NCBI GenBank assembly: GCA_037903355.1
Contig: JBAJFE010000010.1
Location: 496,001-560,000, forward strand
Direction: 5' to 3'
DNA: 64,000 nucleotides
DNA from: Trichuris trichiura
Lineage: Eukaryota; Nematoda; Enoplea; Trichinellida; Trichuridae
Below, piece by piece: positions 5,531-60,284 of the stretch. The first letter of the stretch is position 1. Each line of letters opens with the position of its first letter. The notes below the pieces were generated by a model. It was not told the DNA's origin. It searched no databases and worked only from the letters and a program-made list of their open reading frames with translations. A program made the position numbers and the translations under genes.

Positions 5531-5902
5531 CTACTTGGTGCTCATGTACTTGTCTACTGCCTTTATCCCTTCGTTTACCGCGTGCCTGCTGAGCTCACCC
5601 TTCAGCAAAAGCCGAACTGCAGCTTGGATTTCTCTCGCGCCGATCGTATGGCGCTTGCTGTGATGGGCCAGACGGGAAGCCTCTGATGCTATTCGATCAA
5701 ACATGTCATTGACGAAGCTGTTCATGATCCACATTGACTTGCAGCTTATTTTCAGTTCAGGATGATATAACTTCAGCATCTTGTAAATGTAACTGGTGAA
5801 CGACTCCTTCCTTTTCTTCCTTCTTTTCTTGTCACTACTCGTTGTCGTCATGCGAGAGCTCCCAGCTTGCATCGCGCTTTCATCTGTAGATTTCTCAGCC
5901 AT
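5531..5902 (-). CDS. Divergent histone H2B
   Basis: Core nucleosomal histone that pairs with H2A. The chosen start is the seventh codon (MAEKSTDE) of a frame that could begin at 5920, giving about 123 residues, the usual H2B length. A basic tail ([11 protein letters not shown]) leads into the histone fold, with [48 protein letters not shown] and the C-terminal helix [21 protein letters not shown] all visible. It departs from canonical H2B at normally fixed places: SSKAMSIMNSF is [11 protein letters not shown] here, LAHYNKRST is LAHHSKRHT, and LLLPGEL is LLLKGEL. The Lys before YMS corresponds to the conserved ubiquitination site. It is intronless and followed by a canonical histone stem-loop, so it is probably S-phase or germline expressed. 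No H2A partner lies next to it. Confidence 0.93.
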
Positions 5903-5948
5903 CTCAAAAACTGCGAGCAAAAAATGACAAATGCCTATTCGACGGCGG

Positions 5949-5956
5949 TATAAATA
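5949..5956. promoter_or_regulatory. TATA-like sequence upstream of H2B
   Basis: TATAAATA (plus strand), read TATTTATA on the gene strand, lies about 50 nt upstream of the H2B start codon, in a place suited to a core promoter. The orientation is better for a plus-strand promoter, but no plus-strand histone follows. Weak call. Confidence 0.3.
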
Positions 5957-5959
5957 AGC

Positions 5960-11693: not shown

Positions 11694-11922
11694 TACTACT
11701 CGTACGCAAGCACAGTGCAGTAAACAGTAATCAAGTCATGCGCAGTAGAATGCATATCAACCGAAACGTTTTTTGTTCGATCGAACAAAGCGAATTTGCT
11801 ACTTTTTAAATATCATAACACCATGGAAAGCGATTAAATAAGGGCCTAGCGCCCGCTATTCAATTTGTTTATTGAATTAAAAACGACTGCTTTCAGTATT
11901 AGGACGACTGCTTTTAGTAATA

Positions 11923-18330: not shown

Positions 18331-20410
18331 GCGAAACAGGAAAGCAGCATTTGACCTGTGTCGGTAATACAATGCAGCTGCTACTTGAGTTTCTCGCAAC
18401 TGACTAGACGCCAGCAACGCCACATATGCGTTTTGTAAAGCAGAGGTATTCAGTGTCTTTTTAGCTCCCGAAAGGTGCCCTACCGCCCACAGGTTAACCA
18501 ACTCCAAACTTCCCCTCTGCGCTTCAACGCCTTCGTACGGCTTTTCAGCGCTGCCAGGAATGAAACCGCCAGCATGGAAACGTACTGCTTTATGCTCCGC
18601 ACTAGTGCTGCGCAAGGCCCTTCCTTATATCGCCCCCATCCTTCAGCATTGAGATAGCTATCACCTTCCTCCGGAGTGTGAACACAACGTAGCCGTAGAG
18701 CGAACTAGTACGCAGTAAAAAATGCCCATGAGCAAAGGAAGCATCTTAGATTTCTACTACGTAAACGCTGAGTCATGAGGCCATCATTTAACTCGTAGAG
18801 GGCATCCTAAATGGTGGGAAGCAACAAGTGAAAAAAAACAGCTTCCACAGATAACATTGGGTGTAGCAATGACACCAAGAATTTACAGTGTGTTCATCAA
18901 CGAGAGAATGAACTCAAACTATGAGGTAATGTGTTTATACAACTGAAATGAATAGGGAGCAATTAATGCAACAATTTGGACAAAACAGTAGCGCTTCCAG
19001 ATGACTTCTACTGCTAGATCTCTGCTTCTTGGAGTTCTCAAAATAGTAGGGTAGAATGATGGACCGCTTCTCCGGTAACTGCTCTACCAGTGCGCATCAC
19101 TAACCAGTCGTAAAAAGATAAGTAAGGATCCCCTGCGAAACCTCCATGGGGAACACCTCCTGCCAAAAGTTCATTCACCCTACCAGCGACGTCGTTGCTT
19201 TTGCGTTCACCGCTATCCAAGGGATCCCTTACCCTACAACCCCCTAACCCCAATTGGTCCATCGACGTTTTTCAGGCCCCTTTGCTTATCACAGCTCTAC
19301 AAGAACTGTTTGCTGTACCTTAGCACCGAGCATCCACAAAGATAGCAAAAGCTGCTAAAAAAAAGCAAATCTTCGTGCAGTTCTGTCGATACTGTTCTAA
19401 ACATTGCATGTATTCCAGCAGGAAAGCACGTGGTTCATCCATGTTCACAAGAGTAGACTGAAAGAACTACCTCATTGTGCTCCTTTCCTCAATTTTCCAT
19501 CACTCATGCTAACTGGGTACAACAACTCACCATGTGCACAACCTTCAAATGGAACACTTTCAAAGCAAATCCAACCCAGGCTTAACCCAACTTGCGTTCC
19601 GCTATATAAGCGAAAGTTAAATTTGAACAGAAATCACTATTCCTGAACATTCAGTTAAACACACAAAAACATGCCACGCCGAGAAAACAACAAAGTTACT
19701 AAAGGCTACTCCACCCCGGCAATCAACCCTTTGTTATGACGAAGACACTTGTATCTTTACATCGTGAACTGCAAAACAACTAAATTTTTGTGGAGAGAAA
19801 AAGCAACCCCCACTGAGCAGAATTCAAAACGCGCTATCGGTAATGCGCAACTTCTCTCGGAAACAAGACTGTATCATGTCAGCAACAAAATTAAACCCTA
19901 TTGCAGCAATGAAACATTTCGTTTAGAAACGCAACCGGATTGTACTAAAGTTCGTTTCAAACTATGAAGGCTTCATCATTTCACTATATTGACTACTAAC
20001 AGACTCTCAAATTAAAAAAAGCAGACATATGAACCCTCATCAGTCAACTCTTGGAAAAAGTGCAATAGTGGAGCTGCTAACATGATGCCCAAAATAATAG
20101 TTTCCAAGAAAGTGAAATGTCCATGATACACAACGCTAAGCAATAGGTAATCATGAACACATTTAGCGTATTAAAACACTTTTTAACAAACCGTTGTTGA
20201 GTATGAATATGGACAATCACAAGACAACATAAAGAACCTTAGGAAACAACAAAAACGAAGCCAACTACCTAATACCAGACACCCATCGCAAAACATTGCA
20301 ACGGGAAAGAAACTACAAAGAGCACATGACTTTTCAGCTGTTGTCATGATCTCGAACTCCGCATTAGCCAAAAGCAAGTGCGCAGAACAGAACTTTACGT
20401 ACACTTCATA
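18331..20410. other. 3' flank of gene A, partly unique
   Basis: About 18330-19680 has no counterpart in the right arm and holds no recognisable gene; a long minus-strand frame at 18112-18615 is Ala/Arg-rich without motif. About 19870-20410 is inverted relative to 38770-39300. Confidence 0.5.
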
Positions 20411-20416
20411 AAAGCA

Positions 20417-20422
20417 TTTATT
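20417..20422 (-). promoter_or_regulatory. Poly(A) signal of gene A
   Basis: AATAAA on the minus strand (GTCTAATAAATGC), about 45 nt after the stop codon of gene A. It is conserved in copy B at 38809-38814. Confidence 0.75.
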
Positions 20423-20464
20423 AGACCATAATACGCAAGTATGAGATATGAATAACAAAGTTGT

Positions 20465-23400
20465 CTAAACGATATCGTTACTTATAGTGTCCACGTTCTG
20501 CACTTGACCGACATTGTCGCCTTCCAATTTAACGAAAAGTGCTACATCGTCTGGTAATATTTCGTTTTCACTTTCGCCAGCCGCGGAAGAACGACGTGTA
20601 GGAAATGAGTGATCATAAATACCAAACTGTACCCAATTTCCGGAAGACTGACAAACCAAAGGTGAACCAATAGGCTAAAAAGTGTGCACCAGTAAAGATC
20701 ATTGAAAAGATTCCTAATGATAAACTCACATATTGCAAAACGTTCTTCTGACCAACTCCACAGTACATGACGCTAGGCAAGAATTTTTTACCAAGATGTT
20801 GCTTACATTCCGTTGGTGTGAGCAACTGATATTGTACTCTCACCGGCATACCATGTTGACAAACACCAGAAATATAACATTGCATTCTCGATGAAGCACC
20901 TGTACCTGAATATGGCAATGGGAATGGTTGAACACCATTTATAACTTTCACTCTATGTTTCAATTTGAGCATAGTCATTCCAATGTCTTTCAATTCATCA
21001 TATCCTTCATAGAAAGGACGTGCGTAAACGTTTCCTACTTCTATTAATGTCCTGTTCAGTTGATCAACTGCCATTTTTCGTGGCAACAATGATCCAATAT
21101 ATACTTGATACTTATTATTACCCCTAAAATTATAATTACGTATTTCTGACGACCGCCTACCTGAAGAGGCGTTCACTTACGTAGGTGGAACACATCTAGA
21201 AGATGTCACTACTTCATCCGAATACTCTTCTCCACGTTTTGCATACAATGTTCCAGTGCAAAGTGGTTCAATGAACGATCCAGAAACGATAAAGATGTGT
21301 ACACCAGATGCACCAGGCAAATGATCATACTGATGATGTTCAGTTGAATTTCCTCTCGTACATGGTACAGTTTGCAGTGCTTCAGTTACATCAGGAATCC
21401 TACTGTCAATTTCATTACCGATTATTTCTCCACTTGATTTTCCCGGAAGGAGGCTATGCATACTGTTACCGATACCAATGATATCACAGCTTGCAGTACG
21501 GCCTTTTGCAATTGCGCTTTCACCAACAATGTTGTCTCGCACTAATATATGTTCGTGATCCTAAATTTATCCAACAAGTAGTAAACCGTATTTGGAATCA
21601 ACATGTAAACATTTACCGCGATTGTCTGATCGGACAGGTCATACTTTGGCAGTGATGGTAAGATTACCATGTTAACAGCTTCCAGTGAAGAACTTGGATA
21701 TTCCGCTGTCGGTAGAGGAGTTGGCAGAGGAACAATTTGTATAGCGTTATCATGTGTAGGGCAGATTAAAACTCCATTCGACGAATCAGGAGTTGGTTTA
21801 ACGGGTCTTTGTCCGGGTGTTGGACAGATGACAGGCCCTTTAGGCCTGTCAGGTACTGGATACGGTATTATTTCTTCGCCAAGGCTTGAACTTGAACTTC
21901 CTGAATGGTGTGGCCGTTTTGTCTTATTGAAACGTAACAAAGCAGCCAAACGAGTCTTTACAAGTCTAACGTTCAGTCTTATTACGCGAGTGGAGTCCTC
22001 TGTTTCTTCTGCTGATTTTGAACTATCTTTGGTTTCATGAGAAACAGTTATATGTTTAGAAGACGAATCTAATGACGATGACGACGACGACGATGAAGAC
22101 TTGCTTCTTTTCTGTTCAGGTCTACTGATTGTAGGCAGTGTTGTAGGAATGGGGATGTATACTTCGGAAATTATTCTGGTTCGCCGTCTACGCTTTTCCC
22201 GTGAAGCGGATGAAGACGATGATGAAGAAGATGATGCATGAGTTGGTTTATGTGGTTTGACTCCTGGTTGATGATCAACATTTTCATAAAGAGTTTGAAC
22301 TTTTTTGCCAGAAAACACGTCATGCGCTACATTGATTTCGCCGTAGAATCCCAAGTTCTGCTTGACGTTATTGTTTATCTTCAGCGACAACTGATTCAGA
22401 TAAACACCATATAGGTAAACCCGACCATTTACGAGACAAACCATTGGGGATCCGAGTTGCTAAAATTGTATTGCGTATAAATACGTTTCGATTAAACAAA
22501 AAAACTTCGACTTACAATGTATTGCCTTTTCTTTTCTTCCATAGCGCAAACACCGCGGTATTGAGGTGCTTTTGAGTTTGCTGCTAAGCAACGAGGCTTT
22601 CTAGTTATCATTACAATTTCTTCATCCATACGGTGTTCTCGTTTATCATAATAAGTTACATAGCACGAAGCAGAAGGTGGAGGTACGGAATCTCTTTCTG
22701 CCAAGCAAACAGGTACTACATTATCTACTCTCGATAAAGGCCTTTCAAGTTTCAGAATAGCAATGCCTCTAAGTGTTTCATTGTTCCCCCATGGTAAACC
22801 GTACAGGTTAACATCAGCTATTTTAACTTTTATTCCACGTCTTTTCTGGCGCGAAAATCGTGGAGAATTGGCAAATATCAGTAATTCCGACTTGGCTGAT
22901 GCTGGTGTGTACCTTAGCAAAATAACTACAAAGTTTAGCATTGCAATCGTATACGTGTCCAACATACTTCTTGAAGCAGTCTGCTGCAGTTATAATAAGA
23001 TCAGAAGTATTGGCAATCTGCTGATATCCGCCTCTATGTACCAAGCTTCCAATACATTTTGTTGATCCCTTTAGTCGTGAAGTGATGATCACGTTCCAAG
23101 GGAACATATCCTGTGCATTGTTTCCAGTGACGTAACTTTCAACAGTTCTTCCAAAGGTGTCTGTGTCACCACAGTACACTGGTCTCTGCTGGAAGAAAGT
23201 CTCTGATCCAATTTAAATGGCATTGTTTTACAAGAAAGCATTTCAATGCAAGGAATATGAAAGGAATCATTGTTTAAGAAACAGATGTTAAGTACTAGCA
23301 ATGAACAAGGGCTGATTAAATTTCCTTTCTGTACACACTTCCATTACTTTAATTGCTGTTCTATTGTTTACTCCTTTCTTTGTGCTAACGTTGACAGAAG

Positions 23401-25776
23401 CATATTATGCAAAGGCTCGCGCTCAGAACTGTCACAGCAATCTACGGCAGTTGCTTGTATGGCTGTACGACTTTTTGATGATAGAAGAGCTTCTCAGGAT
23501 TGCTTTGGTGTTAGACGGTTGTAGTACAAGTGGATCGCACAGAGGTTTGAAGGGACGCGCATGATAAGGAGGTGGAATGTAGCGATCTGAGCAGTTGTAC
23601 ATTACCTGGACTGGTGGTGCAGGTTGAGCGGGTCTTGTTGGTTTAGGACATGGTAACTTGCCAGGTCTTGGTGGTTTATTGTCCTGCAACATAGAAAAAC
23701 AGCAAGTGGACCGCCGCTGTCTAGACGTTCCAATAAAGTGTGGCATTCTAGCATTTGTGTCAAGCTTACTTTGGAATAACGATGTGAGCATGAAGGCGCT
23801 GGTGATTATGGCATAAAGCAGATTTAATTTCGAAACATTTCAAAGTTAAACGCATAAAATGTTCATCTGCTGATGCGCTTTGATAGCTTACGCTCTCAGT
23901 ATGTTAAAATCACACAGAAAATTTCATAATGATGTTTGCTGCGGAGAAAAATTGTAACATTTATACACCTTATAATCTCCAAACACAGATTATGAGCGAT
24001 TCTGAAACGTATGAAAAAAATTGTACTCTACTGTCTCTAACAATATGTTCTTGCATTTAGTGGTAAGACATTTGTACAGCCTGATTACAAACAGCATCGA
24101 CAACAGAAAAAAGTTTAAAATAAAGAATGGCGCGTCAAATCTGATCCAGTTAATCAAACACTGTCACTGTTCCGCAGCTTATATTTGGCTTTTGAAGGGT
24201 GATCTTGTTGGTTTCACCCTCTTACTATATTCAATCAAAGCGATCTCGCAGTCTCTGTCGGTCTGTTATTGATTGGCCTACGTACTGCTCTCGATAAATT
24301 TTACAGTTTGGGATAGTATCTTTTTTAACGACAACATGGTAAAATATTTGTTCACAAGAAGTTTACACTTGCACAACTCCTGTAACAATCAGAGAGGGAA
24401 CACATCAGATACGACTATTATCTGATATTCTGTCTACGAGGGCGAACGGTTTAGTAGTACTGTCATTACTGTTCGCTGAAGCTGTTTCTTTTTTGTAGAA
24501 TGTTTCTGTTCACCCAACCAGGTTTGGACTTTCCATGTTTATAAATGCCCCTTTTCCGCTGCAGACGGAATGAAGAGTAAAGGTTACCATATTTTCAGTG
24601 GGGACAATAAGTAAAGCTTCTTTTTTCACTCGCTCTTAACGGTTCGCAGAGACGGAATAATGTTGTTCACTTACTGTTGGTGGGTGCTTGCAACCTTGGT
24701 CTGGTTTCTCCTCAGAGGCACTGGATGATTTTTTTGTAGGTGATGGTTTCTGGCTCAAGCCGAGCTCAATGAATCCGTACACATTTGCTGGGTTTCTATC
24801 GAGCACCGTTGCGACATGTCCATAGAAATGGAGAGACTCCTTCTGGGATGCGGAAGCTCCTTTTGTGATCAGTTCAGACAGATATACACCATATTGATAT
24901 GCTTTTCCTTTCAGCAGACAAACCAATGGTCCTCCAAGTGACTTAAAATAAGATACATTGTAAAAGGTAGTATAATTAGGCTGCGTACTTTTTCTGTTTC
25001 AGTTCTATCGTGATGACTACACAGTCCTTTTGTTTTAGCCAATTCCGGGAAATGGCCAAAATTGCATAGAGAACCAGGCACCATTCTTACAATATCCTCA
25101 TCCAAACGTCTGTTATGATAGGTAGAAACGAAGCACTTGGATGTATCTGACGGAATAGCATATGCAGCTTTCACGCATACTGGGGAAACTTCCTTATTGA
25201 AGACGAATGGTTTCTTCAAAGTGACTAGAGCAATACCATTCCAAATGTTTTCATTTACTCTATTGTATGGCATGATTCGAATGCCTTTCGGTTCTCCGCT
25301 TTGGCCCTCATTTAAAAATAGACGAAGTCGGTCTAAACCGGCAAACACTTTGTAACTACTGGGTGTTCCCCATCGTTTTTTTAGCACGCTAAAAATGAAC
25401 AAAGTGAGATAAATCATTGAAAGTGATATAATCTTACTGTCGGAAGCAACTTCCAGCTGTCAATATCAATTTTGATGAATTTCTATGTCTGCCGTTGAAA
25501 TCAGTTTCAGGTATGATGCTTCCCAGGCATTTGAAACTTCCAAATTTGCCTCTTATAGCCACTGTCCATGGAAGAACCTCTGACTTGTTGTCCAGGTAAG
25601 CTTGGATTGATTGTCCGCCATATTTTTCCGGTTCACCACATTGGCTTGTGACTTCCTATGGCACAGGAATAACTCTTTATTCCACACATCTGAAGAAAGC
25701 GACTTCTTCTTACTTGTTGGAGCGAATAAAGGCATAATAGCCAAAGGCATGCTGCCCAATGATGTAGTATAGACAT
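20465..25776 (-). CDS. Secreted triple S1-like pseudoprotease, copy A (intact)
   Basis: Eleven exons (minus): 25714-25776, 25438-25655, 24989-25388, 24675-24941, 23606-23683, 22968-23188, 22516-22912, 21617-22459, 21181-21560, 20730-21123, 20465-20674. All junctions are GT-AG with matching phases, total 1156 residues. Residues 1-21 (MSILHHWAACLWLLCLYSLQQ, given as about 20) form a signal peptide. Three chymotrypsin-fold domains follow at about 27-290, 347-600 and 855-1130. Each keeps the Cys42-Cys58 pair, the ALLKL-type strand and a GGP/GSP-like Ser loop. Each lacks the triad: S90/G145/L229, D412/G465/L550, R951/G1004/I1089 stand at His57/Asp102/Ser195. The first domain has KYGG where an active enzyme has (R)IVGG. 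A Pro-rich linker (317-342) and a long Ser/Pro-rich linker with basic clusters (about 618-829) separate the domains. Proteolysis is excluded by sequence; a binding, decoy or inhibitory role outside the cell is inference. Joining domain 1 to 2-3 rests on phase continuity and the lack of a second signal peptide. Confidence 0.85.
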
Positions 25777-25811
25777 TCTGGGCTGTCAGTGCTTCTGGAT
25801 ATCTGTTCACC

Positions 25812-25820
25812 CTTTTTATA
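25812..25820 (-). promoter_or_regulatory. TATA box of gene A
   Basis: TATAAAAAG on the minus strand inside CCTATAAAAAGGG, ending about 35 nt upstream of the ATG at 25776. The same box stands at the same distance in copies B (33228-33236) and C (60320-60328), although upstream sequence differs in B. Confidence 0.7.
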
Positions 25821-25859
25821 GGAATAGAATTGCGTGGCTTCTTGTTTGCGTGCGCCATA

Positions 25860-27930
25860 TGTTCTATGGTACGTTCCTTTTGCGTATTAGAATTTTGCGA
25901 ATGCTTGCATTTATTTTCCGTGTGTTTAATAAACTAGCGTAGTCAAACTAACGTGGTAAACTCAGTAGTTTTACAGTGCCCTTTTTGGAAACGTGGTGCT
26001 ATTGTATAAACAGTCTTTTTGAATATGTTCTTCATGTTTTTTGTATCTTGTGGCTGCTGTTCAAACGCACTATAAGCTAACGAAACTCGCTGGTCTCGCT
26101 GTCTCTGCAGTGTGCATCTATTGTTTCCATTGAAAGCTATCGGTTTTCTGCTGAAGCAACGAGTGATTGATCAACTTGGAGGATCTTCTCCGCGTACAGT
26201 AGTAATGTCATAATCATTTGCGCCAGATTTTTTTTTCTTCTTGAATCATTTTACGCTGTACTCCGGGCTAAATTTTATTTGATCGTTTTGTGCTGCTCTT
26301 CATTCTCCTTCGTTCATTTGTTAGTCTTGGATAATTCCAGCAACTCACCAATCTTTAATCACTGTACAACATTCATTGAACCAGAAATGTATAAGTTAAG
26401 ATGTAACTGTCTTTCGAATTTGGTTCTGTCTAGGCACTGCTATGATTAAAGGGCAGTAATAGAACACGAGTAAGCAGTTCAAGTAATTTTTGAGTAGCGA
26501 AGATGTTATCCGAAGATGTTCACTGCGGTTTCTAAGCTGAGCTGCCAGCACATCGCAGTAACATTACATGTCAAATACGTAGCCAGTGCAGACACCATGT
26601 TAAAAGAGTTGTGGTAGTCGGCTGAACTAATCAAGTGAGAAGATGAGTAAATTTGATTTACATGACAAAACGCGCTTATGACATAAGGAAGTAAAGGGGA
26701 TAAGATTATAGACCACCTCCATACATTTCAGTGGTCCCATTTACGGTGGGTTTTTTCAGATTTACCGAATTTAGAATTACAACGCGAACCGTGAACATCC
26801 TGTTGGAAAGAAAATTTTAATGAAATTTAACTGTTAGAAACAATGAAACTGTTGGACAGATCAGATAAACTTGCCGTTACGATCAGTATTAACTCGAAGT
26901 ATTACTTTCATATGTCTGGGCAAAATGTGTGTGGACCCATTAACAAGAGTTACTGCACACTTTCTAGTTTCTAATGACTACGTTTTTGAAAAATAATTTC
27001 GACATCTCAAGCAGCGCTGCTAACTATTCAATGTATAGCCGGTAACGTTTGTAAGTTCTGGCTGCGTGTAGTGGTACTTCTACGCGAAAGTTTGTTTTCA
27101 ACCCAAAGAGCCCTTTCATCTTCGACTGGAAGTAACAGTGCAGTGACTGTAGAACTGTCCTTTGTTTCCCACTTGTTTTAACCACATCTCCCTGAAAATG
27201 TCTTGTATAAGTAATTTCGTAATCTTCTTGTTTAGGTAGTGCATAGTTCTTTTTCTATAAACATGTGTTCTGGGAAATGGCAGATGAAAGAATGCGGTGA
27301 TTGAATTTTCGTGGCAATGACGCAACTGAGTTAACATGAAAATTTTATCACAACGAAATGTTATGTCTGACGCATAAGTAAATTCACAATTTTGAAATCC
27401 ATTCTGCCAGTTTACCGAGCTGCCGCATATTCCTTTATATAGGTTAATCATAACTTCATTCTTGTGTGATTATATTTTACGCAAATGCTGGAATAGTTTG
27501 GGCTTTCAATATTAACGTTTCTTAATAGACACTAGTAAACTTCACTTTGCCAGTGATTTGGTCTGTTGGAGTTTCCCTAACAAGAGTTAACCACATGGAG
27601 TTACATTACTTCTCATTGTTTATTTTTTCTTTTTTGCCAAGTACGGAGAATGCGCTTCTTGCAATCTAAGGAGAGGAGAACTGGCAATTTTACAACAGCC
27701 TAAGTCATCTGGAAAGATAAGGCGGTTTTGGTTTTGTTTTGCCTATGAGCATATACCTTTTGTCCTTAGGCAAAAGTCTTTAAACGTTGAAACGAAAGAT
27801 ATGTTACTTTCTTGTCATCCTTCATTTCATGGTCGTTCCTGCGTTTGTCCGGTTTATGGTGACTGTTTTCTTGTCGCTGCTCAGTATATTAAAGTGCGGA
27901 AAAGTTCTATGGTGTAGTGTTAATATGAGG
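25860..27930. repeat. 5' flank of gene A, shared with copy C
   Basis: Sequence upstream of gene A that aligns in the same orientation with about 60366-63600 upstream of copy C. Shared blocks include CACTGTACAACATTCATTGAACCAGAAATGT, given here by its first bases CACTGTACAACATTCATTGA, and TAATTTCGACATCTCAAG. It is absent upstream of copy B. No gene is recognised inside. Short frames shared with the C flank (27116-27451 minus, 27787-27981 plus) have no motifs. The block may hold regulatory sequence. Confidence 0.8.
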
Positions 27931-29215
27931 AATGTTCGGAAAGTTCCCGGAAAGACGGTGCAGTGTCTAACAGGGTGTTAACTGATGGGCCAAAACTTGT
28001 TTTATTTTACCACTGTTATCTTCAGACTTGTACGGTGAGGTAGCGGTAGCCGACCCTCAGGCCGGGGGTTACAAGCTGCACCTAAAGTAATCGTTTTTCC
28101 TGTGATATGGAAAATTTCGCTTTAAGGTCGGAGTCAACATTACATTTCTATGCAAGCTTGGCTAGCAGCTGAGGAGGATTATTCAATCATTGCGGCAGGT
28201 TTTCAGCAGTAGTGCACCATCTAAATCAGTCGTCTGTAAGTGGATAAAGCTTTTCCAGCAGGGCAGAGGCCATCGAAGATGACCGGAGAGCAGGAAGGCC
28301 GGCAACCGTGACAACCAAAGGAACCGTAGCTCTTGTCTGGAACCTAGTAGAAGGACACCGCAAAATTATCATCAGGAGGATTGCTGAAATGGCTGGGATC
28401 TCCTTGCATTTCAGCACTTAGAATACTGCGTGAAACCCTTGGTCTGAGGAAGCTTTCAGCTCGGTGGGTTCCAAAAGCGTTACGCGAAGAACAGCTGGTT
28501 CAACGCGTTAACCTTTTTCCAGAGCTTTTAACGAAGATTGAAGCAAATGAGATCTGGTTTTTGACCGCCTCGTCATAAGAGATGAAACTTAGATCTACTA
28601 TTATGACCCTGAGAGTAAGATCCAATGCAAGCAGTGGTTATCGAGGGGGTCAGCAGGTCCAATCAAGTTCAAAGCGGAGCGGTCGGCTAGAATGGTTATG
28701 GCAACTATATTCTGGGTCTCAGACGGAGTAATTCTGACTGACTTCCTCGACGGAGAGCGAACGGTTACAGCAAGTTATTACAAGGCAGTATTAAGAAAAT
28801 TAAAAACAGCATTAGCAAAAAAACTGACTGGCAAGTTGCACTTCGGTGTCCTTTTCCATCACGATAACGCGCGGGCTCATTCGTCTAAGACTTTGAGGAC
28901 TGTTTCTCGTGAGTTTCGGTGTGAAGTCATTCCACACCCGCCCTACAGTCCTGATGTTGCCCCGTCGGACTTTTTCCTCTTCTCAAAGTTAAAAGAACAT
29001 TTAAACGGCAGGGTGTTCAGGTCAGCAGATGACGTGAAACGCGTCGTCTGGACTTGGTGCAATACACAGCCCCTAGGATTCTACAAAGAAGGTCTGCGAA
29101 GGTGGAGACACCGTCTGCAGAAGTGTTTAAAGGTTGACGGAAGATACGTTAAGAAATAAGTTTTATATCGTTGCAAATAAAATTTTTATTTAATTTTTTC
29201 AGGAACTTCGTGTAT
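27930..29215 (+). mobile_element. Degenerate mariner (D,D34D) transposon
   Basis: Homology between the A and C 5' flanks ends at about 27930, where CGGAAAGTTCCCGGAAAG occurs. The inverse of the right end near 29210 (CACGAAGTTCCTGAAAAA) is a plausible decayed terminal inverted repeat. The interior carries a mariner transposase remnant (28200-29159). Ends are approximate because the termini are diverged. Confidence 0.75.
28200..29159 (+). pseudogene. Mariner transposase, broken
   Basis: Fragments in three frames follow mariner order: the HTH/linker region (GRPATVTTK, RRIAEMAGIS), RILRETLGLRKLSARWVP, the first catalytic Asp in DET, then the long 3' block with HHDNARAHSS, HPPYSPDVAPSDFFLF and the terminal RWRHRLQKCL..GRY. 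The second and third catalytic Asp are separated by 34 residues, the D,D34D mark of mariner proper. At least three frameshifts and one stop (the Trp codon after DET is TAG) break it, so it is dead. Confidence 0.92.
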
Positions 29216-30620: not shown

Positions 30621-33204
30621 CCTCGTTTCAATTTCCACAAGACGAAACTTAACGAACTTGCGGACTTTGAAAAGAAGGCTATAATTATAAAATCTTTAGA
30701 ATCCATGCTACGTTCTCATCCCTCGTCGACTGCAGGTGCATTCAAGAGTATTAACTCATTACAAAGTCTCAAGGTAGCATGGTGATATAAGGGTGCTGGC
30801 AACCAAGAGGGTGAATGGGGAAGCGCTACTTGCCTTCCCAGTGGGGACTCTTGGAAGCTAAGGGTTGCGCTCAGACGCAGACAGTTGACAGTGGTCGGCT
30901 CAGCGTCAATCAGCAACAAAAGATTTATGGACTTGGAAGAAAGAAATTACTTGTACTCGAATCATCGCTTTGGGCTCTCCAATTGTCCCTGAGGTGAAAA
31001 ACGCATCCAAATTATCGCGTAAGCAATTATGGGTTAAGATCATAATTCCGGAAATCAAGAGACTTAGTCAGAAAAGTTGTGTCATAGCTGTAAACTTTTA
31101 ACCGTTTTGCACTTGCAGCTGATTCAAAATTTGAACCCTTTTAAAACTTTATTGCCTGGAACCTTTAGCCAACTTGGAACTTTTAACCAATTCAGGATTT
31201 CGACCCGTTTAATTTGAGGCATTTTGGATTTTAAACTTTTCTGCATGTCAATAGTCTGAACTTATCCTGCTTTTCAAACTACTTGACGTTTGTAATTATG
31301 CAGACCTCTGCTTCAGGAACCAACGTTCGTACATATTCCATTCCAAGATTTGTGACTCTACGTAATCAGAAGTAAACATTTTTGAAATTGCACAAACTGT
31401 TCTTTAAGCAACGTTCTTTGTTACTTATGCCAGATCCGCTGTTTCAGTATTCACAGATTCAGGATTTGTATTATTTAAATTCTGATAGTCTAGAATTTTG
31501 AAACGTGCTTTTTGAACTTCGGGAACTTCAACTGACCTTGCGCATACGAGTTTCTTGTCGTCATTGAATAACTTAAGTTTTGCTAAAAATAAGCAAACGG
31601 CAAATGTGTATAAGTGATTGCAGCATTAGCAACGTGTCCATTCAGCTAAGTGAACTTAAGCGAAGCAAACGATATGAATTCTATTCAATGTTTTGCTTGT
31701 AAAGTTAGAGAAGGCTTAAAAAACAGCAACTTATTTGGTAATTGAGAAAAGCAAAAAACACGGACTTTCGCGATGGGTTAGTTCTGCCGTCAGTACAGAA
31801 AGATATAGGTTCGCCTAAATCGTCGTCCGCACACAACGATACGCTGTAAAGTCGTTTTTCTGTTTCCTGAAGCAAATGAGGCAGTACCGACGTCGCAAAC
31901 CTGATCCAGTGAATCAGATTCGTCCAAAACATACTGACCGACAAACCTTTATCACTGAAACATTCACATCACAACACCTGTTTTAATAGCCGGCCTTCTT
32001 AACGTCTCTTTTCCAGTTCCCTGATTTTGCTTACTGCAGGATTCGTTTAAAGTTGACATACCTTTATACCCTGCTACCCGCAGCTTAGAAAATTTAAACA
32101 GGTATTGGAAAACATGTGAGAGAAACACATAAATATAATAAAGAGCAATAAAATGCTTGGCACAATGTGCGTCTAAGGACATATAAAATGGGCATCAGGG
32201 GCTCAAGCAGAATTGCAAGATAAGTTCACAACTGTCACAACAAAAACTGATTAAAATTAATAAATGAATACTGCATGATTCGTAACGCTTCTTGACATGC
32301 AGCATCTATTTTTCATGACTTGGGTAACTGGAATGTGGACAGTTTAATATCTATGACAAGTGGGAGTTGTCTTGGCACATGTTCAGCAGAAAAATCCAGA
32401 CTAACGAAAACATGAAGGATAGAATTTTCGTTTTCAATTAATATTAGTTTAACCAGCCCATTTAATAGACGGATTCAGAAACCTCAGCACTGAATGAAAA
32501 CTCTAAGGCTCCGAGTAATTGCAATAACTGCTCTGTTGCTTCTCATAAACCGTCTTTTCATAAAAACACCGCCTACCAAAAGTGAAGCAGTAAAGACCTA
32601 CATCTATCCGCAACATTTTTGAATCAAGGAATGCTCCGAAGTGGGTAAAGGTCGACCGTAGAACGCAGGGAACACTTAAGGCTACTACGTCAACACAGAA
32701 CAGTTACCTGCGGCAAACGAACAGCGAATCATCAAATCAGTAACATTGAATTTCCACCATTTCATGCTGCGGTAAGGATAGAAAAACACTTTAGTAAAGA
32801 CTGCGCAACACCTAGTGCTGCACATACACGGAATGTCTTTTGCGTGGGCATCTCATTCTACAGAAGTTCTTCGATACTTACACGAACAGTCTGTCAGTGA
32901 TTTTCCAGAAACAACATGCATTCTGTGTAATCTGCGAAAATAAAACTGCAGAGGCACTGATGTTTTTCTATGTCGTTAGCAAAAGTTCTTATCAAACAAC
33001 ACACAGAACTCACAGAATAGCACAAAAATCTGTCCCAAAAGATCTGTTTACACAAAACAATCCGCCCTCAAAAAGGTCGGCTTAAAACGAACAAATCAAA
33101 CGGCATTGTCAGTTCGCAAACAGTCAAAAATTAAACAATGCATATAATCGCAAAAATTCAATAAGCAGCAAGAAGATTGCGAGGAAAATATTCCACAAGC
33201 AAAC
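30621..33204. other. Spacer of inverted duplication, no gene
   Basis: No supported gene. About 31095-31270 is a degenerate simple repeat of TTTTGAACCTTTTAA-like units. Frames at 31705-31944 and 31964-32182 (minus) carry no motif. The right arm of the duplication begins at about 33205. Confidence 0.5.
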
Positions 33205-33227
33205 AAACAGCCACGCAATTCTATTCC

Positions 33228-33236
33228 TATAAAAAG
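33228..33236 (+). promoter_or_regulatory. TATA box of copy B
   Basis: TATAAAAAG within CCTATAAAAAGGG, about 35 nt upstream of the ATG at 33272, identical to copy A. The inverted-duplication breakpoint lies about 20 bp further upstream. Confidence 0.6.
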
Positions 33237-33271
33237 GGTGAACAGATATCCAGAAGCACTGACAGACCAGA

Positions 33272-36200
33272 ATGTCTATACTTCATCATTGGGCAGCATG
33301 CCTTTGGCTACTATGCCTTTATTCGCTCCAACAAGTAAGAAGAAGTCGCTTTCTTCAGATGTGTGGAATAAAGAGTTATTCCTGTGCCATAGGAAGTCAC
33401 AAGCCAATGTGGTGAACCGGAAAAATATGGAGGACAATCAATCCAAGCTTACCTGGACAACAAGTCAGAGGTTCTTCCATGGACAGTGGCTATAAGAGGC
33501 AAATTTGGAAGTTTCAAATGCCTGGGAAGCATCATACCTGAAACTGATTTCAACGGCAGACATAGAAATTCATCAAAATTGATATTGACAGCTGGAAGTT
33601 GCTTCCGATAGTAAGATTATATCACTTTCAATGATTTATCTCACTTTGTTCATTTTTAGCGTGCTAAAAAAACGATGGGGAACACCCAGTAGTTACAAAG
33701 TGTTCGCCGGTTTAGACCGACTTCGTCTATTTTTAAATGAGGGCCAAAGCGGAGAACCGAAAGGCATTCGAATCATGCCATACAATAGAGTAAATGAAAA
33801 CATTTGGAATGGTATTGCTCTAGTCACTTTGAAGAAACCATTCGTCTTCAATAAGGAAGTTTCCCCAGTATGCGTGAAAGCTGCATATGCTATTCCGTCA
33901 GATACATCCAAGTGCTTCGTTTCTACCTATCATAACAGACGTTTGGATGAGGATATTGTAAGAATGGTGCCTGGTTCTCTATGCAATTTTGGCCATTTCC
34001 CGGAATTGGCTAAAACAAAAGGACTGTGTAGTCATCACGATAGAACTGAAACAGAAAAAGTACGCAGCCTAAGTATACTACCTTTTACAATGTATCTTAT
34101 TTTAAGTCACTTGGAGGACCATTGGTTTGTCTGCTGAAAGGAAAAGCATATCAATATGGTGTATATCTGTCTGAACTGATCACAAAAGGAGCATCCGCAT
34201 CCCAGAAGGAGTCTCTCCATTTCTATGGACATGTCGCAACGGTGCTCGATAGAAACCCAGCAAATGTGTACGGATTCATTGAGCTCGGCTTGAGCCAGAA
34301 ACCATCACCTACAAAAAAATCATCCAGTGCCTCTGAGGAGAAACCAGACCAAGGTTGCAAGCACCCACCAACAGTAAGTGAACGACATTATTCCGTCTCT
34401 GCGAACCGTTAAGAGCGAGTGAAAAAAGAAGCTTTACTTATTGTCCCCACTGAAAATATGATAACCTTTACTCTTCATTCCGTCTGCAACGGAAAAGGGG
34501 CATTTATAAACATGGAAAGTCCAAACCTGGTTGGGTGAACAGAAACATTCTACAAAAAAGAAACGGTTTCAGCGAACAGTAATGACAGTACTACTAAACC
34601 GTTCGCCCTCGTAGACAGAATATCAGATAATAGTCGTATCTGATGTGTTCCCTCTCTGATTGTTACAGGAATTGTGCAGGTGTAAACTTTTGTGAACAAA
34701 TATTTTACCATGTTGTCGTTAAAAAAGATACTATCCCAAACTGTAAAATTTATCGAGAGCAGTACGTAGGCCAATCAATAACAGACCGACAGAGACTACG
34801 AGATCGCTTTGATTGAATATAGTAAGAGGGTGAAACCAACAAGATCACCCTTCAAAAGCCAAATGTAAGCTGCGGAACAGTGACAGTGTTTGATTAACTG
34901 GATCAGATTTGACGCGCCATTCTTTATTTTAAACTTTTTTCTGTTGTCGATGCTGTTTGTAATCAGACTGTACAAATGTCTTACCAGTAAATGCAAGAAC
35001 ATATTGTTAGAGACAGTAGAGTACAATTTTTTCATACGTTTCAGAATCGCTCATAATCTGTGTTTGGAGATTATAAGGTGTATAAATGTTACAATTTTTC
35101 TCCGCAGCAAACATCATTATGAAATTTTCTGTGTGATTTTAACATACTGAGAGCGTAAGCTATCAAAGCGCATCAGCAGATGAACATTTTATGCGTTTCA
35201 CTTTGAAATGTTTCGAAATTAAATCTGCTTTATGCCATAATCAACAGCGCCTTCATACTCACATCGTTATTCCAAAGTAAGCTTGACACAAATGCTAGAA
35301 TGCCACACTTTATTGGAACGTCTAGACAGCGGCGGTCCATTGCTGTTTTTCTATGTTGCAGGACAATAAACCACCAAGACCTGGCAAGTTACCATGTCCT
35401 AAACCAACAAGACCCGCTCAACCTGCACCACCAGTCCAGGTAATGTACAACTGCTCAGATCGCTACATTCCATCCTCCTTATTATGCGCGTCCCTTCAAA
35501 CCTCTGTGCCATCCACTTGTACTACAACCGTCTAACACCAAAGCAATCCTGAGAAGCTCTTCTATCATCTAAACGTCGTACAGCCATACAAGCAACTGCC
35601 GTAGATTGCTGTGACAGTTCTGAGCGCGAGCCTTTGCATAATATGCTTCTGTCAACGTTAGCACAAAGAAAGGAGTAAACAATAGAACAGCAATTAAAGT
35701 AATGGAAGTGTGTACAGAAAGGAAACTTAATCACCTTGTTCATTGCTAGTACTTAACATCTGTTTCTTAAACAATGATTCCTTTCATATTCCTTGCATTG
35801 AAATGCTTTCATGTAAAACAATGCCATTTAAATTGGATCAGAGACTTTCTTCCAGCAGAGACCAGTGTACTGTGGTGACACAGACACCTTTGGAAGAACT
35901 GTTGAAAGTTACGTCACTGGAAACAATGCACAGGATATGTTCCCTTGGAACGTGATCATCACTTCACGAATAAAGGGATCAACAAAATGTATTGGAAGCT
36001 TGGTACATAGAGGCGGATATCAGCAGATTGCCAATACTTCTGATCTTATTATAACTGCAGCAGACTGCTTCAAGAAGTATGTTGGACACGTATACGATTT
36101 CAGTGCTAAACTTTGTAGTTATTTTGCTAAGGTACACACCAGCATCAGCCAAGTCGGAATACTGATATTTGCCAATTCTCCACGATTTTCCGCCAGAAAA

Positions 36201-38766: not shown

Positions 38767-38808
38767 ACAACTTTGTTATTCATATCTTATACTTGCGTAT
38801 TATGGTCT

Positions 38809-38814
38809 AATAAA
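38809..38814 (+). promoter_or_regulatory. Poly(A) signal of copy B
   Basis: AATAAA in GTCTAATAAATGC, about 43 nt after the stop, at the same place as in copy A. Confidence 0.65.
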
Positions 38815-39529
38815 TGCTTTTATGAAGTGTACGCAAAGTTTTGTTCTGAGCACTTGCGTCTGGCTAATGCGAAGTTTGAAATCATGACAACAGCTGAAAA
38901 GTGAAAAGTCATGTGTTCTTTGCAATTTCCTTCCGGTTGGAATGTTTTGCGATGGGTGTCGGGTAACAGGTAGTTAGCTTCGTTTTTGTGGTTTTCTAAA
39001 GTTCTTTATGTTGTCTTGTGATTGTCCATATTCATACTCAACAACGGTTTGTTAATAAGTGTTTTAATACGCTAAATGTGTTCATGATTACCTATTGCTT
39101 AGCGTTGTGTATCATGGACATTTCACTTTCTTGGAAACTATTATTTTGGGCATCATTGTTAGCAGCTCCACATTTGCACTTTTTCCAAGAGTTGACTGAT
39201 GAAGCTTCATGTGTCTGCTTTTTTTCATTTGAGATTCTGTTAGTAGTCAATATAGGGAAGTGATGAAGCCTTCATAATTTGAAACGAACTTTAGCACAAT
39301 GCAGTTACATTTCTAAACGAAATGTTTCGTTGCTGCAATAGCGTTTAATTTTGTTGCTGGCATGATACAGTCTTGTTTCCCAGAGGAGTTGCGCACTGAT
39401 TAGCCGTTTTGAATTCTGCTCACTAAGCACTGGTGTTTCCCTCAGAAAGCTTGGTTTACTTTGCAGGTAATGATGGAGAGACAAAATTGTTGTCGCAGAG
39501 GTGGGTAAAGATGTCGCATTGTACTGAAC

Positions 39530-54907: not shown

Positions 54908-57900
54908 TTAAACGAAAGAAGTTTCATAGGTTCTGAAATTCTGCACCTGACCGGCGTTGTCGCCTTCCAGTTTAACGAAAAGTGCTACATCCTCCGGTGG
55001 TAATTCGTTTTCACTTTCGCCAGTGGCATAAGAATGTCTTGCAGTGAATGAGTGATCATAAATACCAAATTGTACCCAACTACCGGAAGACTGACAAAGC
55101 AAAGGCGAACCGACAGGCTAAAATGCGCACCAATAAATCTTAGCAAAAAAAGTACCTGCAATTAACTCACGTATTGCAAAACGTTCTTCTGACCAACTCC
55201 GCAGTACATGACGCTTGGCAAAAATTTATCTCCAAGATGTTGCTTGCATTCCGTTGGCGTGAGCAGCTGATATTGAATTCTCACTGGCATACCATGTTGA
55301 CAAACACCAGAAACATAGCACTGCATTCTCGATGAAGCACCTGTACCTGAGTATGGTAATGGGAATGATTGAACACCACTTATAACTTTCACTCTGTGTT
55401 TCAGTTTGAGCACAGTCATTCCAACTTCTTTCAGTTCGTCATATTCCTCGTAGAAAGGAGTAGTGTAAATACTTCCAACTTCTATTAATGTCCTGTTCAG
55501 TTGATCAACTGCCATTCTCCGTGGCAACAATGATCCAACATATACTCGATAATTGCTACCACCCCTGAAAAATTAACTGCATATTCCTGACGACCGTCTG
55601 CTTGAAGAGGCGCTCACTTACGAAGGGGGAACACATCTAGAGGCTGTCACTACTTCATCTGAATACGCCTGTCCACGTTTTGCATACAATGTCCCAGTGC
55701 ATAGTGGTTCAATGGATGATCCAGATATCATAAAGATGTGTACACCAGATGCACCAGGCAAATGCTCGTACTGATGATGTTCAGTCGAATTTCTTCCCTT
55801 GCATGGTTCGGTAATCAGTGCGCCAGTTGCATCAGGAATTCTACTGTCGATTTCATTACCGATTATTTCTCCACTTGATTTTCCTGGAAGGAGGCTATGC
55901 ATACTATTACCGGCACCAATGATATCACAGCTTGCAGTATGGCCTTTTGCAATTGCACTTTCACCAACAATGTTGTCTCGAACTAATATATGTTCGTGAT
56001 CCTAAATTTATGCAACATATAGTAAATTATATTTGGAATAACGATGCAAATACTTACCGCGATTGTCTGATTGGACATATCATATTTTGGCAGTGATGGT
56101 AAGATTACCATGTTAACAGCTTCCAATGAAGAACTTGGATATTCCGCTGTCGGTAGTGGAGTTGGCAGGGGAACAATTTCTATAGCGTTGTCAGGTGTAG
56201 GGCAGATTAAAACTCCACTAGATGAACCAGGAGCAGGTTTAGTGGGTTTTTGTCCGGGCTTTGGACAGATGACAGGTCTTTTAGGTTCACCGGGTGGTGG
56301 ATACGGCTTTATTTCTTCGCCAAGGCTTGAACTCGAACTTCCTGAATGGTGTGGTTGTTTTGCCTTATAGGACCGTAACAAGGAAGCCAAACGAGTCTTT
56401 ACAACTTTAACGTTCAGTCTTATGACTCGAGTCGAATCGTCTGCTTCTTCAGCTGATTTTGTATTATTCCGAACTTCACGAGAGGCAGTCACATATGCAG
56501 AAGACGAATCCGATGAGGATGACGACGACGATGAAGACTTGCTTCTTTTCTGACTAGGTCTACTTATTGACGGCGGTATTGTAGCGAGGGGAATATACAG
56601 ATCAGGAAATAAGCCGGATCGTCGTTTATCGATTTCACGTGAAGCCGATGAAGACGATGAAGAAGATGATGCTTGAATTGGTTTATGTGGTTTGACTCCC
56701 GGTTGGCGACCAACTTTTTCAGAAAGAGTTTGAACTTTTTTGCCAGAGAACACGTCATGCACTACGTTGATTTCGCTATAGAATCCCAAGTTCTGCTTCA
56801 CTTTTTCGTTTATCTTCAGAGACAACTGATTCAGATAAACACCGTACTGGTAAGCGCGACCTTTTACGAGACAAATCATTGGGGCTCCGAGTTGCTAAAA
56901 TTGTATTGTCTGTAAATAAGTTTTGATTAATCAAGAAAATTCCAACTTACAATGTATTGCTTTTTCTTTTCTTCAATAGCGCAGACACCACGGTATTCAG
57001 GTGCTTTTGAGCCTGCTGCCAAGCAATGAGCGTTCCTAGTTATCATTACAATTTCTTCATCCATGCGATGTTCTCGTTTATCATAATGAGTTACATAGCA
57101 CGAAGCAAAAGGTGGAGGTACCGAGCCTCTTTCTGCCAGGCAAACAGGTACTACATTATCTTCTCTTGATAAAGGCCTTTCAAGTTTCAGAATAGCAATG
57201 CCTCTACGTGTTTCATTGTTTCCCCATCGCAAACCGTACAAGCTAACATCAGCTATTTTAACTTTTATTCCGCGTCTCTTTAGGCGTGAAAATCGCGGGG
57301 AACTGGCAAATACACGTAGCTGCGATTTGGCTGATGCTGGTGTGTACCTTAGCAGAATCTCTCCAATGTTTAATACTGAAATTGCATAGATGTCCAACAT
57401 ACTTGGCAAAGCAGTCTGCTGCAGTTATGATAAAGTCAGAGGTATTGGCAATCTGCTGATATCCGTCCCTATGCACCAAGCTTCCAATACATTTTGTTGA
57501 TCCCATTATTTTTGAAGTGATGATCACGTTCCAAGGGAACATATCCTGGGCATTGTTTCCAGTGACGTAACTTTCAACAGTTCTTCCAAAGGTGGCTGTA
57601 TCACCACAGTACACTGGTTTCCGCTGAAAGAAAGTCTTTGATCCAATAAAAATTAGTATTGTTTTACACGAAATCATTTCAATACAAAGATTATGAGATG
57701 AGTCATTGTTTAAGAAACAGCTGTTAACTATTAGCAGTAAACAAGGATTAAGTCTCCTTTCTGTACACACTCCCATTACTTTTATTGCTGTTCTATTGTT
57801 TACTCCTTCCTTTCTGTTTACGTTGATAGGATTATGTTATCCAAACGTTCGCTCTCAGAACTACCATAGCAAGCTACGGCAGTTGCTTGTATGGCTGTAC

Positions 57901-60284
57901 GGCTTTTAGGTTTTAGAAGAACTTCTCAGGGATGCTATGGTGTTATGTACTGAAAGGCTTGTAGTATAGGTAGATGTCACAGAGGATTGAAGAGAAATGC
58001 GTAATAAGCTAATGGAACGTAGCGCTCTGGGCAGTTGTACGCTACCTGGGCTGGTGGTGCAGGTTGAGCGGGTTTTGTTGGTCCAGAACATGGTGGTCGT
58101 GCAGGCTTGCCAGGTTTTTGTGGTTTACCGCCCTGCAACATAGAAAAACAGAAAGTGGAGTGACTAAGAGTTCCAATAGAGTGTCACATTCTAGGAGTTT
58201 CGTTAGGTTTACTATGGAAAAGCGATATGAGTATGAAAAGATTGTTGATCATGGCATAAAGCAGGTATAATTTCGACACTTTTCAAAGTGAAACGCATAA
58301 AATGTTAACCTGCGCAAGCTGTTTGATTGCTTGCTCTCCAAGTATGTTAAAATCGAACAGAAATATTCCATAACGATATTTCCTGAGGACAACAGCTGTA
58401 TTATTTATACTCGTTATAATCGTTGAACAAGGATTATGGGCGACTCGGAAACGTACGAAAAAAGTTGTACTTTACTGTCTTTAACTATTTGTTCTTCCAT
58501 TCACTGGTAGGACATTTTTACACTCTAATTACAGACAGCATGGACAACAGGAAAAGTTGTGACTGAAGAACAGCGTGAAAATTCCCATCGTCCTTATTCG
58601 ACATTCAGTGGTTGCTAAAATTATAATTGGATTCTCGCAGCTTCTAATGACGCCATTACGAATTGAAATGCACGTTTGACCTTTGTAAGGTAATTCTGTT
58701 CATTTCAACTCTGAGTACGTTCAGTAATAGGTATTTCGCAGTCCAAATAAGTTTGTTTTTGACTGGCCTACGTACTGCTCTCGAAAAATTATACACTTTA
58801 ACACTGTACCTTTCCTGACGACGAAATCCTAAACTGTTTGTTTATAAACAGTTACTGCCTCTGCTCAAGGACTGCTGGAATTAGAGACACCATACCTAAC
58901 AGGACTATTAACTGATATGCTGCCTAGAAAAGGTGAAAACCGTTCAGTAGCGTTGCCAATATCATTTCTCTGAAGATGGGAATTAATGTTTCATATAACG
59001 CTTCAGCTCACCCGTCCAGGTTTGCACTTTCCCGTGCTAATAAACGCTCTTCATCTGTAGCGGACAGAGTACGAGATACTCCGACACGGTTATGGGGTGT
59101 TATAATTTCAGTGCGCATGACAACTGAATGGCTTTTTTACCCCCTTACTGAAAGTTATCAACTACCGAATAATGGAATAAACTTACGGGTGATGGTTTGC
59201 AATCTTGGTGTGGCTTTTCTTCAGAGCTGCCTGATGATTTTTTCGAAGAAGATGGTTTCTGGCTCAAGCCGAGCTCAATGAATCTGAATGCATTTGCTGG
59301 GCTTTTGTCGAGCACCGTTGCAACATGCCCGTAGAAATGCAGAGACTGCTTTTGGAATGAGAACGCCTCTCTGGTGATCAGTTCAGACAGATAAATACCA
59401 AATTGATATGCTCTTCCGCCGACCAGACAAACCAATGGTCCTCCGAGTGACTTAAGATAGGAAACATCGTAAAAAGTATTATAATTACACTGTGTACTTT
59501 TTCTGTTTCAGCTCTGTCGTGAGTACTGCATATTCCTTTTGTTTTAGCCAATTCTGGGAAATGGCCAAAATTGCATACAGAACCAGGTACCATTCTTACA
59601 AGTTCCTCATCCAAGCGTTTCTTATGATAAGTAGAAACGAAGCACTTGGATGTGTCTCCCGGAATAGCATATACAGCTTTCACGCATACTGGGGAAACTC
59701 TTTATTGAAGACGAATGGTTTCCTCAAAGTGACTAGGGCAATGCCGTTCCAAATGTTTTCATTTACTGCATTGTATGGCATGATTCGGATGCCTTTCGGT
59801 TCTCCACTTTGGCCGCGGTTTCCGAATAGACGAAGTCGATCTAAACCGGCGAACACTGTGTAACTACTGGGTGTTCCCCACCGTTTTTGTAGTACACTAC
59901 AAACGAACAAAGTGAGATAAATCGTTGAAAGTGACATAATCTTACTGGCGGAAACAACTTCCAGCCGTCAGTATCAATCTTGAAGAATTTCTATGTCTGC
60001 TGTTGAAATCGTTCTCAGGTATGATGCTTCCCAGGCATTTGAAATTTCCAAATTTGCCTCTTATAGCCACTGTCCATGGAAGAACTTCTGATTTGCTGTC
60101 CAGGTAAGCTTGGATTGATTGTCCTCCATATTTAACTGGTTCACCACATTGGCTTGTGACTTCCTATGGCACAGGAATAACTCTTTATTCCACACATCTG
60201 AAGGAAGCGACTTCATGTTACTTGTTGGAGAGAATAAAGGCATAATAGCCAAAAGCATGCTGCCCAATGATGAAGTATAGACAT
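54908..60284 (-). CDS. Triple S1-like pseudoprotease, copy C (one frameshift)
   Basis: Eleven exons (minus): 60222-60284, 59946-60163, 59498-59896, 59187-59450, 58046-58132, 57403-57623, 56951-57347, 56058-56894, 55622-56001, 55171-55564, 54908-55117. Exon lengths equal those of copy A except exons 3 (399 against 400), 4, 5 and 8. The missing base in exon 3 is near 59700 (AATAAAGAGTTT against AATAAGGAAGTTT in A). It shifts domain 1 into a stop (FPQYA then TGA), so as written the gene is broken; without it the protein would be about 1156 residues. Triad positions are again lost: Ser/Gly/Leu, Asp/Gly/Leu and Arg/Gly/Val. Domain 3 reads KEVGMTVLKL, so not even a displaced Asp remains. Protein differences from A are spread over all exons, showing an older split than A/B. 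The Ser-rich and Pro-rich linkers are kept. Confidence 0.85.

What the first reader, a model, noticed from the sequence alone, without database searches (positions are those of the whole stretch)
20465..25776. A secreted protein of three tandem trypsin-fold domains, none with a catalytic triad
Seen: 11 phase-consistent exons give a signal peptide and three S1-like domains. At His57/Asp102/Ser195 they have Ser90/Gly145/Leu229, Asp412/Gly465/Leu550 and Arg951/Gly1004/Ile1089, while the structural Cys pair around position 57 and the hydrophobic strands remain. Known: parasite pseudoproteases exist; scabies mite SMIPP-S proteins, for example, bind complement factors. Inference: this is a dedicated non-enzymatic scaffold, perhaps host-facing. 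I do not know of a described three-domain form with every triad residue lost.
Basis: partly seen in the sequence, partly recalled or inferred. Interest (0 to 1): 0.88.

Follow-up and report, generated by a model that had tools for sequence, protein, structure and literature searches.

The report
Triple dead-protease protein of whipworms
A whipworm gene encodes a protein, probably secreted, made of three trypsin-shaped units that have each lost the parts needed to cut proteins, and it belongs to a whipworm gene family that keeps these losses, which suggests the units were reused for binding rather than cutting.

Summary
The loss goes further: Cys191, Gly193, Asp194 and the 214-216 strand are also gone or rebuilt in the relatives aligned. 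The gene is one of many. The window has two more copies, both frameshifted as assembled, and 14 more loci were fetched from the same genome. Relatives are deposited from T. trichiura, T. suis and T. muris; 0 of 30 domains in ten aligned proteins has a triad. All close hits of my three protein searches were Trichuris. Pairwise dN/dS is 0.12-0.37 in the domains, so the sequence is under constraint. Each domain is a three-exon module with the same intron phases, which fits duplication of one module. Best reading: a secreted, non-enzymatic, multivalent binding scaffold. Host-facing action is plausible but untested. Human polyserase-2 has the same layout but keeps one active domain. New variant of a known kind.

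The parts
25714..25776 (-). Exon 1: predicted signal peptide MSILHHWAACLWLLCLYSLQQ
   Evidence: also picked up as the control of the scan
25438..25655 (-). Exon 2: domain 1, start to the 57 region (LTAGSC)
24989..25388 (-). Exon 3: domain 1 middle, Gly at 102 (WNGIA)
24675..24941 (-). Exon 4: domain 1 end, Leu at 195 (KSLGGPL), and short Ser-rich tail
23606..23683 (-). Exon 5: 26-residue Pro-rich connector between domains 1 and 2
   Evidence: present in copies B and C and in L001
22968..23188 (-). Exon 6: domain 2, start to the 57 region (ITAADC)
22516..22912 (-). Exon 7: domain 2 middle, Gly at 102 (LRGIA)
21617..22459 (-). Exon 8: domain 2 end, Leu at 195 (IQLGSPM), then a Ser/Pro-rich linker of about 215 residues
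21181..21560 (-). Exon 9: domain 3 first strand, insert, and 57 region (VTSSRC)
20730..21123 (-). Exon 10: domain 3 middle, Gly at 102 (DIGMT)
20465..20674 (-). Exon 11: domain 3 end, Ile at 195 (YPIGSPL), stop codon
33272..38766 (+). Copy B: head-to-head inverted copy; exons 1-6 96.8-100% identical to A; exon 7 is 2 bases shorter and exon 8 191 bases longer than in A, so the frame differs between those two places as assembled (not mended)
   Evidence: 192-bp tandem repeat at 37019-37387
54908..60284 (-). Copy C: diverged copy with matches to all 11 exons; one-base gap in exon 3 and no open frame past it as assembled (not mended)

Best explanation
A secreted, non-enzymatic scaffold made of three trypsin folds joined by flexible linkers. 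Shown from sequence: one open chain, three S1 domains, no catalytic triad, rebuilt oxyanion loop and substrate strand, and constraint across a multigene family with members in three Trichuris species. Inferred: it is secreted by its signal peptide and works by binding partner proteins on surfaces other than the old active site, several at once, as SMIPP-S proteins of scabies mites bind complement proteins; the most likely partners are host mucosal or serum proteins, or the worm's own secreted proteases. My odds: non-enzymatic 0.95, secreted 0.85, host-facing 0.5.
For: Gene model and triad loss. Ten aligned full-length proteins, 30 domains: 0 of 30 have His57, 0 of 30 Asp102, 1 of 30 Ser195 (D3 of P0016, with R57 and G102), so 0 of 30 has a triad. 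17 genomic copies, 153 site readings, 5 set aside (B D2_195, L004 D1_57, L014 D1_57 and D1_102, L013 D3_195: cross-domain or intron reads); 0 of the other 148 carry the catalytic residue. D1 G102, D3 R57 and D3 G102 are 10 of 10. Cys191 lost in 30 of 30 aligned domains, Gly193 and Asp194 in 30 of 30 (P0015 D3 has a gap at 194), and the SWG of 214-216 replaced in 29 of 29 readable domains. dN/dS of copy A against 11 other copies 0.12-0.37 in the domains. S1 fold matches. Trypsin-domain proteins are 21 of 148 and 21 of 468 T. muris ES proteins (PMC9524059, passages).
Against: No transcript, protein or location data for this family were found. The dN/dS averages show no sign of an arms race. Not every replaced site is constrained: D1_57, D1_195, D2_57 and D2_102 are 5-6 of 10. 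D3 keeps an activation-like IVGESA or VIGESA in 4 of 10 proteins, after Lys in the two T. muris ones, so D3 may have lost function later than D1 and D2. Two of the three copies in the window are frameshifted as assembled. The family's names do not occur in the main text of the T. trichiura egg-extract proteome or the T. suis ES paper (supplements not seen). The structure model is of low mean confidence.
Confidence: 0.6

Rival explanations
1. Cofactor of the worm's own proteases: as recalled for insect serine protease homologues, the dead domains dock active Trichuris S1 proteases or their substrates and steer their activity, inside the worm or in its secretions.
For: The same genome gives 165 PF00089 matches, a lower bound, and S01 proteases are raised in hatch-ready eggs and in L1 larvae of T. 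muris (PMC11819529, PMC8976045, passages), so partners are available.
Against: No co-expression or interaction data; no second domain type found by Pfam.
Confidence: 0.2
2. Structural matrix protein of eggshell, polar plug, cuticle or gland lining; the Ser-rich linker is modified or cross-linked and the folds give stability.
For: Ser/Pro-rich linker (43 Ser and 26 Pro of 218 residues); hits limited to Trichuris.
Against: Names of the family do not occur in the main text of the T. trichiura egg-extract proteome, whose first table lists proteins with 10 or more peptides.
Confidence: 0.15
3. Decoy for protease inhibitors, holding serpins, WAP or Kunitz inhibitors through a mimic of the active site.
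For: Trypsin fold; WAP, Kunitz and serpin genes are highly expressed in T. muris L1 larvae (PMC8976045, passages).
Against: The surfaces that canonical inhibitors grip (recalled), residues 193-195 and 214-216, are rebuilt in the aligned domains.
Confidence: 0.05

Closest known systems
Human polyserase-2 (PRSS36)
   Same: Secreted single chain with three tandem S1 domains; domains 2 and 3 lack triad residues and the activation motif (PMC1435904, passages).
   Different: Its first domain is active; not among the hits of my sequence searches.
Scabies mite SMIPP-S proteins
   Same: Parasite family of inactive S1 proteins with a blocked S1 subsite that bind host complement proteins away from the old active site (PMC4031079, passages).
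   Different: Mite, not nematode; single-domain form and independent origin are recalled or inferred, not tested.
Trichinella TS 15-1 / TsSerP
   Same: Sister-genus ES protein with two S1 domains and a hydrophilic stretch; its N-terminal domain is marked with R88/D142/S233 in a figure legend, which I read as triad positions (PMC6233931, passages).
   Different: Two domains, the C-terminal one with H389/D444/S533 and gelatin-cutting activity; not among the hits.
Deposited Trichuris 'Trypsin domain containing' or 'Peptidase S1' proteins (P0002, P0003, P0005, P0006, P0012 and others)
   Same: Same family, layout and dead sites; three PF00089 stretches in each of the five scanned.
   Different: Names are general and do not remark on lost catalysis; some models are partial (P0004, P0007, P0008, P0011, P0013) and P0001 repeats part of D1.

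Membership tests
S1 (chymotrypsin/trypsin) fold superfamily | Sequence profile and double-barrel fold | tested here: met
   PF00089 over cut-off in each domain; Foldseek and VIA matches for D1 and D3; D2 by Pfam and by a thrombin profile match
S1 peptidases (active enzymes) | His57, Asp102, Ser195 | tested here: not met
S1 peptidases (active enzymes) | Gly193 and Asp194 of the oxyanion and activation loop | tested here: not met
   30 of 30 aligned domains, one with a gap at 194
S1 peptidases (active enzymes) | R/K-IVGG activation site | tested here: inconclusive
   Absent in 20 of 20 D1 and D2 domains; a degenerate IVGESA/VIGESA remains in D3 of 4 of 10 proteins
Polyserases | Several S1 domains in one chain | tested here: met
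Polyserases | At least one catalytically active domain | tested here: not met
   By sequence only
SMIPP-S | Inactive S1 proteins in a parasite multigene family | tested here: met
SMIPP-S | Binding and inhibition of host complement | not testable with these tools
   Needs protein
SMIPP-S | Common descent with the mite family | tested here: inconclusive
   No mite protein named among the hits, whose sensitivity is limited
Nematode DUF316 trypsin-like family (PF03761) | Match to PF03761 | tested here: not met
   No match at E up to 1 for copy A or up to 0.5 for P0003, P0005, P0009, P0012, P0016

The most novel reading that the evidence does not exclude
A whipworm-specific class of three-domain S1 scaffolds that was already fully dead before T. 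muris, T. suis and T. trichiura parted, expanded to at least 17 loci in one genome, and acts at the host epithelium as a multivalent binder: avidity built from protease folds.
Probability: 0.35. Interest if true: 0.82.

Novelty: new variant of a known kind. Interest (0 to 1): 0.62.

Why it matters
Reviews describe whipworm secretions as rich in trypsin-domain proteins, and these are often read as digestive or mucus-cutting enzymes. If a conserved multigene part of that class cannot cut, counts of serine proteases by domain overstate enzymes, and the family becomes a set of candidate binding proteins to test for host interaction, as antigens or as markers. It would also be a clear case of a multidomain enzyme architecture kept under selection with no catalysis left in any domain.

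Tried and rejected
A separate gene for domains 2-3 was considered. P0004 (T. trichiura, 899 aa) is deposited that way, but it begins at MLQ, in what is intron in the present model, and I see no signal-like start there. My scan for a signal exon in introns 4 and 5 found 0 in copy A, one in intron 4 of copy C and three (two from one ATG) in intron 4 of L001, none of them alike; exon 1 was found in both control regions. Chance or a frame artefact was rejected on the E-values, the phase-consistent splicing and dN/dS. Relatives outside Trichuris: one search gave 16 Trichuris proteins and two vertebrate multi-S1 proteins (P0017, P0018), which keep triad residues at most aligned places but not in the third aligned domain of P0018; (D1-D2 alignment) gave 10 of 10 Trichuris; (D2 alone) gave two Trichuris proteins, one named 'Putative complement factor Bf', a label I give no weight, and one unnamed S1 protein at 26%. 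NCBIfam gave nothing. Positive selection was looked for only as pairwise averages. The T. trichiura population-genomics paper has no passage with the protease terms I gave. The whipworm genome paper and the T. muris vesicle paper are not held.

Full report
Gene and observation. The 20465-25776 model holds to the base: eleven minus-strand exons, ten GT-AG introns, 1156 residues, one stop at the end, and all nine named residues as stated. Each domain alone matches PF00089 above its curated cut-off, and no other Pfam family matched. Profile alignment with solved structures places the replaced residues of D2 at 57 and 102 (thrombin) and of D3 at 57, 102 and 195 (tryptase). Alignment of ten family proteins with intact S1 domains of two vertebrate proteins returned places the sites of all three domains.

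Depth of the loss. In the 30 aligned domains Cys191, Gly193 and Asp194 are replaced (P0015 D3 has a gap at 194), and Ser214-Trp215-Gly216 is replaced in the 29 domains that can be read: LSE or LSQ in D1; LNQ, MNQ, LNH, LRQ, QRQ or LSQ in D2; DH with Ser, Thr, Ala or Pro, or DYA, in D3 (residue numbers recalled, by alignment). One domain (P0014 D2) has a Cys at the column of Cys220 but none at 191. The R/K-IVGG activation site is absent in 20 of 20 D1 and D2 domains. D3 is different: copy A has IVGESA at 840-845, and 4 of 10 proteins keep IVGESA or VIGESA, after Lys in the two T. muris proteins; all ten lack Asp194 (one by a gap). I read this as a remnant of the old activation site, which also means that D3 may have decayed later than D1 and D2.

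Module origin. Each domain is three exons, (2,3,4), (6,7,8), (9,10,11). Each module starts at phase 0, has an intron of phase 2 just after the 57 region and one of phase 0 just before the 195 loop. D1 also matches copy A's own D2 exons (residues 139-222, 27%, and 229-275, 45%, E 2e-14). This fits duplication of one exon module; D3 did not match D1 or D2 in that search. In the model, residue 829 of P0003 aligns near residue 18 of factor XIa, so exon 9 holds the first strand and an insert.

Family. The window holds copies B and C. Searching the window's own genome with P0003 gave 53 matches on contigs C46, C28, C8 and C1; 14 stretches outside the window were fetched. With A, B and C that makes 17 loci, each with exons of D1, D2 and D3, though D1 is cut by a contig start in L004 and by the edge of the fetched stretch in L014. 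Only the best candidates are scored in such a search, so 17 is a lower bound. How many of the 14 are open was not tested. P0003 itself matches C46:138962-145252 at 94-99% over five pieces and 88% over a sixth, so the organism is T. trichiura or very close to it.

Dead sites across the family. Usual signature: S-G-L, D/E-G-L, R-G-I/V. One search gives 153 readings; after setting aside B D2_195, L004 D1_57, L014 D1_57 and D1_102 and L013 D3_195 as cross-domain or intron reads, 0 of 148 carry the catalytic residue. An earlier table had more such misreads and is superseded. In ten full-length proteins D1_102, D3_57 and D3_102 are invariant, D2_195 and D3_195 are 9 of 10, while D1_57, D1_195, D2_57 and D2_102 are 5-6 of 10. 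One domain, D3 of P0016, keeps Ser195 without the other two.

Selection. NG86 values for copy A against C, L001, L002, L003, L005, L006, L008, L009, L012, L013 and L014 are 0.12-0.37 in the domains (31 values; D1 of L013 and L014 not estimable) and 0.22-0.46 in exon 8 (nine values; L013 and L014 not read). dS passes 1 in several pairs, which is near saturation. Copy B, almost identical to A, gave 0, 0.08 and 0.15 in D1, D2 and D3, and 0.75 in exon 8, where it is partly out of frame. L004, L007, L010 and L011 were not included. These averages do not exclude sites under positive selection, and copy C is itself frameshifted.

Literature. Seen as passages only: reviews say that trypsin-domain proteins are among the commonest T. 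muris ES proteins (PMC9524059) and that chymotrypsin-A-like proteases dominate anterior expression (PMC8660643). Whether this family is among them is not stated in what I saw. Closest architectures: human polyserase-2 (PMC1435904) and Trichinella TS 15-1/TsSerP (PMC6233931). Closest mode of action: SMIPP-S (PMC4031079).

Verdict. The sequence claims are solid; the function is an inference. The best reading is a secreted multivalent binding scaffold, with host-facing action at about even odds.

Noticed in passing
window 19745-25911 and 33137-39490: Copies A and B lie head to head in inverted arms that are 96-98% identical, with a spacer of about 7 kb that holds a mariner-like transposase ORF at 28593-29159 (label by eye). 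Two more inverted pairs were seen: copy C with L003 (98.9%) and L006 with L007 (99.2%); gene conversion and assembly effects are both possible.
   Followed up: partly
window 36132-37614 and 59498-59896: Copies B (exons 7 and 8) and C (exon 3) have indels that shift the frame as assembled while A is open; real pseudogenes and base-calling errors cannot be told apart here.
   Followed up: partly
window 37019-37387: 192-bp tandem repeat, 1.9 copies, within the linker exon of copy B.
   Followed up: no
window 20465-25776, residues 840-845 of the product: IVGESA at the start of domain 3, like a worn activation site; VIGESA after Lys in the two T. muris proteins.
   Followed up: partly
window 10056-11735 minus: Long open frame resembling an RNA uracil methyltransferase of the TRM2 kind (by eye).
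   Followed up: no
window 5534-5992 minus: Open frame resembling histone H2B with an unusual N-terminal tail (by eye).
   Followed up: no
linker before domain 3, P0003 residues about 790-833: A stretch (PLPTPLP..EYPSSS.E ... HEHI) with many invariant columns in ten proteins inside an otherwise variable Ser/Pro linker; it may be a binding or modification site.
   Followed up: no
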